From positions 417,647 through 481,646 of the forward strand of contig GG745344.1 of NCBI GenBank assembly GCA_000151295.1: 64,000 nt of DNA, in the 5' to 3' direction. Origin of the DNA: Allomyces macrogynus ATCC 38327. Lineage: Eukaryota; Blastocladiomycota; Blastocladiomycetes; Blastocladiales; Blastocladiaceae. This document shows, in pieces, positions 11,704 to 12,965 of the stretch. The position numbers and the translations under genes are program-made. A model generated the notes under the pieces. That model was not told where the DNA came from, searched no databases, and was given only the letters and a program-made list of their open reading frames with translations. Position 1 is the stretch's first letter; each line of letters opens with the position of its first letter.

Positions 11704-12965
11704 TCACAGCCCTACCACCGCCGCCAACTCGGCCGCGACCACATCCAGCGGGCGCACGGCCAGCGCGAGGTACGTGACGACCTCAACAATCTGGTTTGCG
11801 GCACCGAGCGAGTCGCCAATGACGCCGTCCAGGATTGAGACAATGTACCGGCCCGCAGCAATCGTCGTCAGCGTGCCGAGCACCCAGACCAGCGCCAGAT
11901 GGTAGAGCGACCCCTGCAGCGCCCACGCCGTAAAGGCAAACGCCGAGGCAGTGCCAACCACGAGCCGGATGGGGGTCACGTACAGGACAAAGTGCTTGCC
12001 CGGCGCGGATTGCGCGGCGTCGTCCATGTAGGGGTGTGCGTAGAGGAGGTAGACGCACGCCCACCGGCCCCTAGTGACGACGGAGGTGCGTTAGTGATTG
12101 GGTACCGTATCTGCGCGCGAAGAGGGTGGGGAACGTACATGACGTGCCCCGCGACAAGCACCATCGGCGACAAGACCATGACGGGCGTCGTCACGGGCGT
12201 GAGTCCGCCAAGCAACAGGTTCAGGCCCGACAGTTTCGCGCCGAGCACGAGCACGAGGCCAATGCACCCGTAGGTGCCGAGACGCGAGTCGCGCATGATG
12301 CGGAGAATCTCGGCTTTCCCCCACCCGCCGCCAAATGCGTCAAAGCAGTCGGCGACGCCGTCCTCGTGAAAGGCGCCCGTCAGCCAGACGGTGGCGAGCG
12401 TCGAGAAGAGCACGCCGATCGTCGGGTGCCACAGGAACGCGGCAAACTTGTAGGCGATCGTGCCGAACAGGCCGACGATGACGCCTGAAAAGATGGGGTC
12501 AGGATGGTGAGGGGAGAGAGTGGGTCGGAGCGAGAGCAGGAGCGCGCTCGTACCAATCAGCGGGAAGTAGACGGTGCTTTGCGAGATCCAATACAAATTA
12601 TGATCGACCTGGTCCGCACGAGGGGAACGTGATCAGCAGCAGCGCTTGCTTTGTGCATCGTCGCTTGATCACAATGCAGTAGTAGCACGTACCCAGATCG
12701 GGCACGGCAGCCGCGTAAAGAACATGATGCCCGTCAAAAACGCTTGGTACTCGTGCATCCAAAAAGACATGCCGGCAAGCACATTGTCCGGGATCTGCTC
12801 GTTGAGATACCGGTTCAGGTCGCCGCGGTCGGTCTTGACAGGCGGCGCAAACGGGTCCTCCTCGACGACAGGGGCACTGACGGCACTGTCCGGGCGCTCA
12901 GCGACATCTTGGACGCCATCGGTGCTGGAAGACTTGGCCTTGGTGCCGGCCTTTTTACGAGCCAT
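11704..12965 (-). CDS. CobS-like adenosylcobinamide-GDP ribazoletransferase (cobalamin synthase)
   Basis: CobS joins AdoCbi-GDP to alpha-ribazole (phosphate) in the last membrane-bound steps of cobalamin assembly. Exons (minus): 12965-12693, 12608-12139 and 12070-11704; introns of 84 and 68 bp; 369 aa. Family motifs are clear: FFTRLPCP near residue 85, VYFPLIG, then the acidic signature TGAFHEDGVADCFDAFGGG followed by LRIMRDSRLGTYG, and C-terminally ILDGVIGDSLGAANQIVE. Several hydrophobic helices (GVIVGLFGTIAYKF, VLFSTLATVWL, FVLYVTPIRLVVG, LALVWVLGTLTTIAAG) fit the polytopic CobS fold. A ~70-residue hydrophilic N-terminal extension has no bacterial counterpart. Spliceosomal introns show that this is a nuclear gene and not bacterial contamination. 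Confidence 0.93.

What the first reader, a model, noticed from the sequence alone, without database searches (positions are those of the whole stretch)
11704..12965. Nuclear, intron-bearing cobalamin synthase (CobS) in a probable fungus
Seen: three exons encode both CobS signatures (GAFHEDGVAD, IMRDSRLGTYG, and GVIGDSLGAANQ) with spliceosomal introns and eukaryotic neighbours. Known: nearly all fungi neither make nor use B12, and CobS belongs to the nucleotide-loop branch of the pathway. Inference: the organism may attach or remodel the lower ligand of scavenged corrinoids, which would imply B12-dependent enzymes such as MetH or methylmalonyl-CoA mutase. The ~70-residue hydrophilic N-terminal extension could be a targeting or regulatory region.
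Basis: partly seen in the sequence, partly recalled or inferred. Interest (0 to 1): 0.88.

Follow-up and report, generated by a model that had tools for sequence, protein, structure and literature searches.

The report
Fungal vitamin B12 tail-attaching gene, CobS
A water-dwelling fungus (Allomyces) carries, as ordinary intron-bearing nuclear genes, two of the enzymes that attach the lower part of vitamin B12, so it can probably convert scavenged look-alike vitamins into the B12 its own enzymes need.

Summary
The gene is real. On the minus strand, 12965 to 11704, four exons (not three) encode a 346-aa CobS (Pfam E 5.9e-42; both loop motifs intact). A diverged copy on another contig keeps the three introns in place with other lengths, under purifying selection (dN 0.030, dS 0.43). 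The host is an Allomyces: nearest protein A. arbusculus, 97%. CobS of 13 named zoosporic fungi forms one clade with it, 100/98: an old fungal gene, not contamination. The genome also encodes CobT, MetH, methylmalonyl-CoA mutase, adenosyltransferases and MetE. CobU (two models), CobY, BluB, CbiZ and CbiB were not found. Most likely use: remodelling scavenged cobamides with external dimethylbenzimidazole (DMB), as proposed for Chlamydomonas. B12 use by such fungi is published (PMC8085122); I found no paper on their CobS or CobT. The missing CobU is the open point. The boldest reading is base exchange by a reversible CobS without CobU; it predicts growth on pseudocobalamin plus DMB but not on cobinamide plus DMB.

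The parts
12693..12965 (-). CobS exon 1 (273 nt): start codon, N-terminal extension, start of the conserved core
   Evidence: same exon in homeolog
12609..12692 (-). intron 1, 84 nt, GTACGT...CCAG, phase 0; 80 nt in the homeolog
12554..12608 (-). CobS exon 2 (55 nt), VDHNLYWISQSTVYFPLI
   Evidence: residues aligned across fungi
12139..12484 (-). CobS exon 3 (346 nt), core of the CobS domain
12339..12368 (-). HEDGVADCFD, the HxDxxxDxxD loop motif found to matter for CobS function in Salmonella
   Evidence: motif from PMC8092220, passages; coordinates read off
12267..12299 (-). IMRDSRLGTYG, second conserved stretch
   Evidence: coordinates read off
12071..12138 (-). intron 3, 68 nt, GTACGT...CTAG, phase 2; 56 nt in the homeolog
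11704..12070 (-). CobS exon 4 (367 nt) with stop codon
11803..11826 (-). GVIGDSLG, the GxxGDxxG loop motif of CobS
   Evidence: motif from PMC8092220, passages; coordinates read off

Best explanation
This is a working nuclear cobS gene of an Allomyces fungus. Its product, probably a membrane enzyme, joins an activated lower-ligand nucleotide (alpha-ribazole or its 5'-phosphate, made by the fungus's CobT from dimethylbenzimidazole taken up from outside) to the corrinoid ring. The genome also has B12-dependent methionine synthase, methylmalonyl-CoA mutase and adenosyltransferases, but no detected CobU, BluB, CbiZ or CbiB. The likely purpose is therefore to convert scavenged cobamides with an unsuitable lower ligand into cobalamin, as proposed for Chlamydomonas and other algae. 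Shown here: the gene, its conservation and its partner genes. Inferred: activity, substrates, membrane location and remodelling. The first two rivals below are two ways in which it could get its substrate.
For: Spliced protein matches Pfam CobS, E 5.9e-42. Both loop motifs tested by mutation in Salmonella (PMC8092220, passages) are intact in the window copy and the homeolog; among 13 named fungal proteins the first is present in 13 and the second in 12, the exception being a partial sequence. Homeolog: 95.7% aa identity, dN/dS about 0.07 by NG86 (0.024/0.70 by YN00), three introns in the same places with different lengths. Partner genes in the same genome: CobT, MetH at two places plus a fragment, methylmalonyl-CoA mutase, PduO-type adenosyltransferase, 8 exon matches at 4 places. 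Fungal CobS is one clade, 100/98, and so is fungal CobT with one unnamed row inside, SH-aLRT 99. CobS and CobT share a contig length in 3 of 8 fungi where both were listed, with consecutive locus tags in Quaeritorhiza. Algal precedent: C. reinhardtii and P. lutheri have COBT and COBS and use pseudocobalamin plus DMB; O. tauri and T. pseudonana have neither and do not appear to remodel (PMC4850488, passages).
Against: No CobU/CobP by two models, the second at E up to 1, with no first-look candidate in either, and no CobY-model match at E <= 0.001 (2 candidates scored), so the known supply of the CobS substrate adenosylcobinamide-GDP is missing. The five NCBIfam hits are all CobS models but all fall below their curated cut-offs (best 191 of 273 bits). 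In the algal paper A. anophagefferens uses pseudocobalamin at very high DMB although CobS was not identified in it, so CobS may not be the whole story there. CobC was not tested. No transcript, enzyme or growth data were available; what I read of the algal work shows no assay of COBS itself.
Confidence: 0.75

Rival explanations
1. CobU-free base exchange: CobS itself strips the unsuitable lower ligand by running backwards (cobamide + GMP gives cobinamide-GDP + the old nucleoside or nucleotide) and then attaches the CobT-made one, so that two enzymes suffice for remodelling.
For: CobU, CobY, CbiZ and CbiB not found while CobS and CobT are kept. Chlamydomonas, which has COBS and COBT and in which cbiZ and cbiB were not identified, regained growth on pseudocobalamin plus DMB but not on cobinamide plus DMB (PMC4850488, passages): what an exchange without CobU predicts.
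Against: Reversibility of CobS is my inference from phosphotransferase chemistry; I saw no report of it. Whether Chlamydomonas has CobU I did not test, and the paper's main text does not mention it. A divergent or unrelated kinase and guanylyltransferase would explain the same absence. Poor cobinamide uptake would explain the algal result.
Confidence: 0.2
2. Conventional salvage: the fungus has an unrecognised CobU substitute and assembles cobalamin from scavenged cobinamide plus DMB.
For: CobS and CobT are present, and in bacteria CobS works on the product of CobU (recalled).
Against: No CobU by two models and no CobY match; the Chlamydomonas mutant did not grow on cobinamide plus DMB.
Confidence: 0.2
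3. Contamination: a bacterial cobS assembled into a fungal contig.
For: CobS is found in many prokaryotes (10 of 14 control genomes).
Against: Three introns, eukaryotic neighbours, a mostly colinear homeologous region, and a 97% identical protein in A. arbusculus with other fungi next.
Confidence: 0.01
4. The protein is of the CobS family but has moved to another phosphotransferase reaction, for example on lipid head groups.
For: It scores below the NCBIfam naming cut-offs.
Against: The motif residues that matter in Salmonella are kept; CobT and B12 enzymes co-occur; the only Pfam family matched at E <= 0.001 is CobS.
Confidence: 0.05

Closest known systems
Algal COBS/COBT cobamide remodelling (Helliwell et al. 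2016, PMC4850488; passages read)
   Same: Nuclear eukaryotic CobS and CobT; no cbiZ or cbiB identified; host has METH and, as in Chlamydomonas, METE.
   Different: A heterotrophic fungus that also has methylmalonyl-CoA mutase; fungal CobS is a clade of its own beside the algal one; no growth data.
Bacterial cobamide synthase CobS (motifs from PMC8092220; passages read)
   Same: Pfam family, both loop motifs, predicted helical protein with hydrophobic stretches.
   Different: Spliced gene, N-terminal extension predicted disordered, no CobU partner detected.
B12 use in early-branching fungi (Orlowska et al. 2021, PMC8085122; abstract, section 6, first of two parts of section 9 and passages read)
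   Same: B12-dependent enzyme families present in Blastocladiomycota.
   Different: Its main text does not contain CobS, CobT or CobU, and it leaves the source of fungal cobalamin open.

Membership tests
CobS (adenosylcobinamide-GDP ribazoletransferase) | match to the curated family model over the whole domain | tested here: met
   PF02654, 144.6 bits against cut-off 23.2, model positions 2-207 of 207
CobS (adenosylcobinamide-GDP ribazoletransferase) | HxDxxxDxxD loop motif | tested here: met
   HEDGVADCFD at residues 149-158; motif from PMC8092220
CobS (adenosylcobinamide-GDP ribazoletransferase) | GxxGDxxG loop motif | tested here: met
   GVIGDSLG at residues 307-314; motif from PMC8092220
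CobS (adenosylcobinamide-GDP ribazoletransferase) | polytopic membrane protein | tested here: inconclusive
   several hydrophobic stretches and a mainly helical model of the A. arbusculus protein, mean pLDDT 72; topology not determined
CobS (adenosylcobinamide-GDP ribazoletransferase) | score above the naming cut-off used for prokaryotic proteins | tested here: inconclusive
   5 of 5 listed NCBIfam hits are CobS models, none above its cut-off (best 191 of 273); the cut-offs serve to name prokaryotic proteins
CobS (adenosylcobinamide-GDP ribazoletransferase) | transferase activity | not testable with these tools
   needs an enzyme assay
CDP-alcohol phosphotransferase family | match to a CDP-alcohol phosphotransferase Pfam model | tested here: not met
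   CobS was the only Pfam family at E <= 0.001
Algal-type COBS/COBT remodelling | CobT and CobS in one nuclear genome | tested here: met
Algal-type COBS/COBT remodelling | no CbiZ and no CbiB | tested here: met
   no match at E <= 0.01; a profile search can miss a divergent gene
Algal-type COBS/COBT remodelling | growth on pseudocobalamin plus DMB | not testable with these tools
   needs culture
Bacterial nucleotide-loop assembly pathway | CobU/CobP or CobY activating cobinamide | tested here: not met
Bacterial nucleotide-loop assembly pathway | CobC phosphatase | not tested
   left out, as it belongs to a broad phosphatase family (PMC4850488 gives the same caution)

The most novel reading that the evidence does not exclude
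Zoosporic fungi, and perhaps algae by shared ancestry, remodel cobamides with only two enzymes, CobT and a reversible CobS: CobS uses GMP to remove the wrong lower ligand, giving cobinamide-GDP, then adds the CobT-made nucleotide. No CobU, CbiZ or CbiB would be needed, and cobinamide could not be used.
Probability: 0.2. Interest if true: 0.8.

Novelty: new member of a known kind. Interest (0 to 1): 0.6.

Why it matters
Fungi were held not to use B12; a 2021 genome survey argued that early-branching fungi do, and left the source of their cobalamin open (PMC8085122). CobS plus CobT in these fungi gives a concrete, testable answer: they may not need finished cobalamin but can rework the wrong kind. 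It would tie fungi into the exchange of corrinoids in water and soil. It suggests (inference from two trees) that tail-attaching enzymes were present before the chytrid and blastocladian lineages parted, and it makes the missing CobU a sharp question.

Tried and rejected
Contamination was considered and dropped because of the homeolog, introns, neighbours and fungal clade. Recent transfer from bacteria was dropped for the same reasons; an ancient one before the fungal split is not excluded, since all eukaryotic rows together have only 88/81 support. A different phosphotransferase family was dropped. Fold comparison led nowhere: no solved relative by sequence and no Foldseek match at E <= 0.001, the best being 0.15 to a halorhodopsin, from a middling model. 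I looked for a pathway gene near CobT: of five ORFs scanned in a 10-kb stretch holding CobT (two of them overlapping on opposite strands), one is a mitochondrial carrier and four gave no family at E <= 0.01; ORFs under 180 aa and spliced genes were not looked at. A second CobT copy was not found; as parts of the assembly read N, that means little. Rows dropped before counts: the careful CobS tree (46 rows) leaves out 26 of the 72 rows, 3 bacterial and 23 unnamed, among them the 4 unnamed metagenome proteins that fell inside the fungal clade. The CobT tree uses 49 of the 120 listed hits plus the window genome's CobT, and leaves out the shorter of two Catenaria proteins. Homologue lists show only the best 120, so absence of a fungus from them is no evidence. 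One paper looked up by DOI was not held.

Full report
What is there. The window lies in contig C59 of a genome held as 54 Mb in 75 contigs. On the minus strand a gene runs from 12965 to 11704. Its four exons (273, 55, 346 and 367 nt) and three GT-AG introns (84, 69 and 68 nt; phases 0, 1, 2) give a protein of 346 residues. The second copy of the gene, on contig C67, settles it: there the three introns sit at the same places but measure 80, 86 and 56 nt, while the coding sequence is 89.5% identical and the protein 95.7%. Of 109 nucleotide differences over 346 codons, 84 are at third positions; dN is 0.030 and dS 0.43 by NG86, 0.024 and 0.70 by YN00. Both copies have therefore been kept by selection.

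What it encodes. The spliced protein matches Pfam CobS with E 5.9e-42 over residues 80-326, and no other Pfam family at E <= 0.001. Five NCBIfam hits are all adenosylcobinamide-GDP ribazoletransferase models; all lie below their curated cut-offs, the best 191 of 273 bits. The loop motifs HxDxxxDxxD and GxxGDxxG, which matter by mutation in Salmonella CobS (PMC8092220; passages read), are intact in the window copy and in the homeolog. Among 13 named fungal proteins the first motif is present in 13 and the second in 12; the exception is labelled partial. An AlphaFold model of the A. arbusculus protein, from an 11-row alignment, is mainly helical with mean pLDDT 72; residues 1-56 and the first motif's loop are below 50. 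The first 70 residues of the window protein hold 9 K/R and 11 D/E, unlike a classical mitochondrial presequence; that comparison is from general knowledge.

Whose genome. The nearest protein in the database is from Allomyces arbusculus, 97% identical and also 346 residues. The next named proteins are from Catenaria, Blastocladiella, Paraphysoderma and chytrids. Neighbours in the window are a GNL3L/Grn1-type GTPase, NOL10 and TFIIB. The window from 3.2 to 20.4 kb is mostly colinear with the 20 kb of C67 that I fetched, at 75-89% nucleotide identity, with two out-of-order matches. That points to a duplicated, perhaps allopolyploid, Allomyces genome; which species it is I do not claim.

Partners in the genome. 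Present: CobT at one place, modelled with two introns as 376 residues; the activation domain of MetH at two places and a fragment at a third; methylmalonyl-CoA mutase (1131 bits to NF006944; one locus of the two best B12-binding matches was scanned); PduO-type adenosyltransferase, 8 exon matches at 4 places; MetE at two places. Not found: CobU with PF02283 and with NF004469 at E up to 1, no first-look candidate in either; CobY TIGR00454 (two candidates scored, none at E <= 0.001); BluB TIGR02476; CbiZ and CbiB, both at E <= 0.01. Each of these searches rang in some of the 14 control genomes; the CobY and BluB models are unspecific, being over cut-off in only 1 and 3 of 14. Multi-exon genes such as CobS, CobT and PduO were found by the same method, so the misses are informative but not proof. 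CobC, CblC, CblD, class II ribonucleotide reductase, the anaerobic DMB pathway and uptake genes were not tested here. A. macrogynus is reported to have a CBA1-like uptake protein and METH (PMC10828217, passages).

History. together list CobS proteins of 13 named fungi; one search lists 13 CobT proteins of 11 named fungi (some names are cut in the output; one CobT reading 'Blastocladi' I take as B. britannica). Eight fungi are in both lists. In 3 of these 8 (Paraphysoderma, Polychytrium, Quaeritorhiza) CobS and CobT come from contigs of the same length, which I read as the same contig, and in Quaeritorhiza the locus tags are consecutive (HK102_011747 and HK102_011748); in the other five the contig lengths differ. 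In a careful tree of 46 CobS rows the 15 fungal rows form one clade, bootstrap 100 and SH-aLRT 98. Within it 8 chytrid rows group (100/96); Quaeritorhiza, a chytrid by recall, instead joins the Blastocladiomycota rows (96/87), while in the quick tree it is unresolved and in the CobT tree it lies outside the other fungi. In the larger quick tree of 72 rows the fungal clade has SH-aLRT 99 and also holds 4 unnamed metagenome proteins. Fungal CobT is likewise one clade, 99, with one unnamed row inside, in a tree of 50 rows. Fungi, green algae and stramenopile or other protist rows together are one side of a branch with only 88/81: a common eukaryotic origin is suggested, not shown.

How it probably works. 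In bacteria CobT makes alpha-ribazole phosphate from DMB and CobS, with CobC, attaches the activated base to GDP-cobinamide (PMC4850488 legend). The fungus has CobT and CobS, at least two B12-dependent enzymes to serve, and no detected BluB, CbiZ or CbiB. The best reading is remodelling of scavenged cobamides using DMB or its nucleoside from the environment. The gap is CobU. A B12-dependent Chlamydomonas mutant, from a species with COBS and COBT but no cbiZ or cbiB identified, grew on pseudocobalamin plus DMB yet not on cobinamide plus DMB (PMC4850488, passages). That is odd for a pathway through CobU and natural if CobS works in both directions and exchanges the base on a complete cobamide; poor uptake of cobinamide is an alternative, and whether the alga has CobU I did not test. 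In the same paper A. anophagefferens, without an identified CobS, used pseudocobalamin at very high DMB, which does not fit a strict need for CobS. The exchange idea is mine; I read of no test of CobS reversibility.

What is known. B12-dependent enzymes in non-Dikarya fungi are published, in 50 of 59 proteomes analysed there, with the whole set in Blastocladiomycota (PMC8085122; abstract, section 6, first of two parts of section 9, passages). Individual fungal proteins already carry automatic names such as cobalamin-5-phosphate synthase-domain-containing protein. I saw no paper on CobS or CobT in fungi among the titles and abstract openings listed by my searches (listed of found: 20 of 113; 20 of 86; 7 of 7; 5 of 5; 12 of 17; 15 of 16; 12 of 15; 0; 2 of 2); they cover only an open-licence library, and one search was cut well short. 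One review says in passing that all eukaryotes can make adenosylcobalamin from exogenous cobinamide (PMC8123684, passage), which the algal result contradicts. A title on remodelling in Chlamydomonas (Baum et al. 2020) was seen only in a reference list; the paper is not held.

Verdict. A real, conserved fungal gene of a known enzyme family, in an organism that plausibly uses it to remodel B12; a new member of a known kind, with one open mechanistic question that could make it more.

Noticed in passing
L013 1357-2772 and L014 1366-2772 (contigs C75 and C73): Two similar proteins with a B12-binding domain (sequences). L013, the one scanned, also has a radical SAM domain (PF04055); its best NCBIfam hit is TIGR04013, 69 bits, far below cut-off. 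Such enzymes are, from recall, mainly prokaryotic, so a fungal pair is unusual.
   Followed up: partly
window about 15.9-16.8 kb, plus strand: By eye, a riboflavin synthase gene in about three exons (MFTGIVE......RFGGHFVQ, GHVDGTA...) lies about 3 kb from CobS (motifs recalled). The ORF of the first exon gave no Pfam match. DMB derives from flavin in bacteria (recalled), but no BluB was found, so the closeness is probably chance.
   Followed up: partly
L010 around 1501-1665 (contig C72): A fragment of MetH, about 55 residues of the activation domain, lies apart from the other two places.
   Followed up: no
G000 contigs C30, C51, C67, C70: Adenosyltransferase exons lie at four places, which could be two kinds of gene in two homeologous copies; not compared in detail.
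   Followed up: no
P0006 and P0130, P0004 and P0127, P0005 and P0128: CobS and CobT share a contig length in Quaeritorhiza, Paraphysoderma and Polychytrium, suggesting a linked gene pair in some early fungi; the contigs themselves could not be fetched here.
   Followed up: partly
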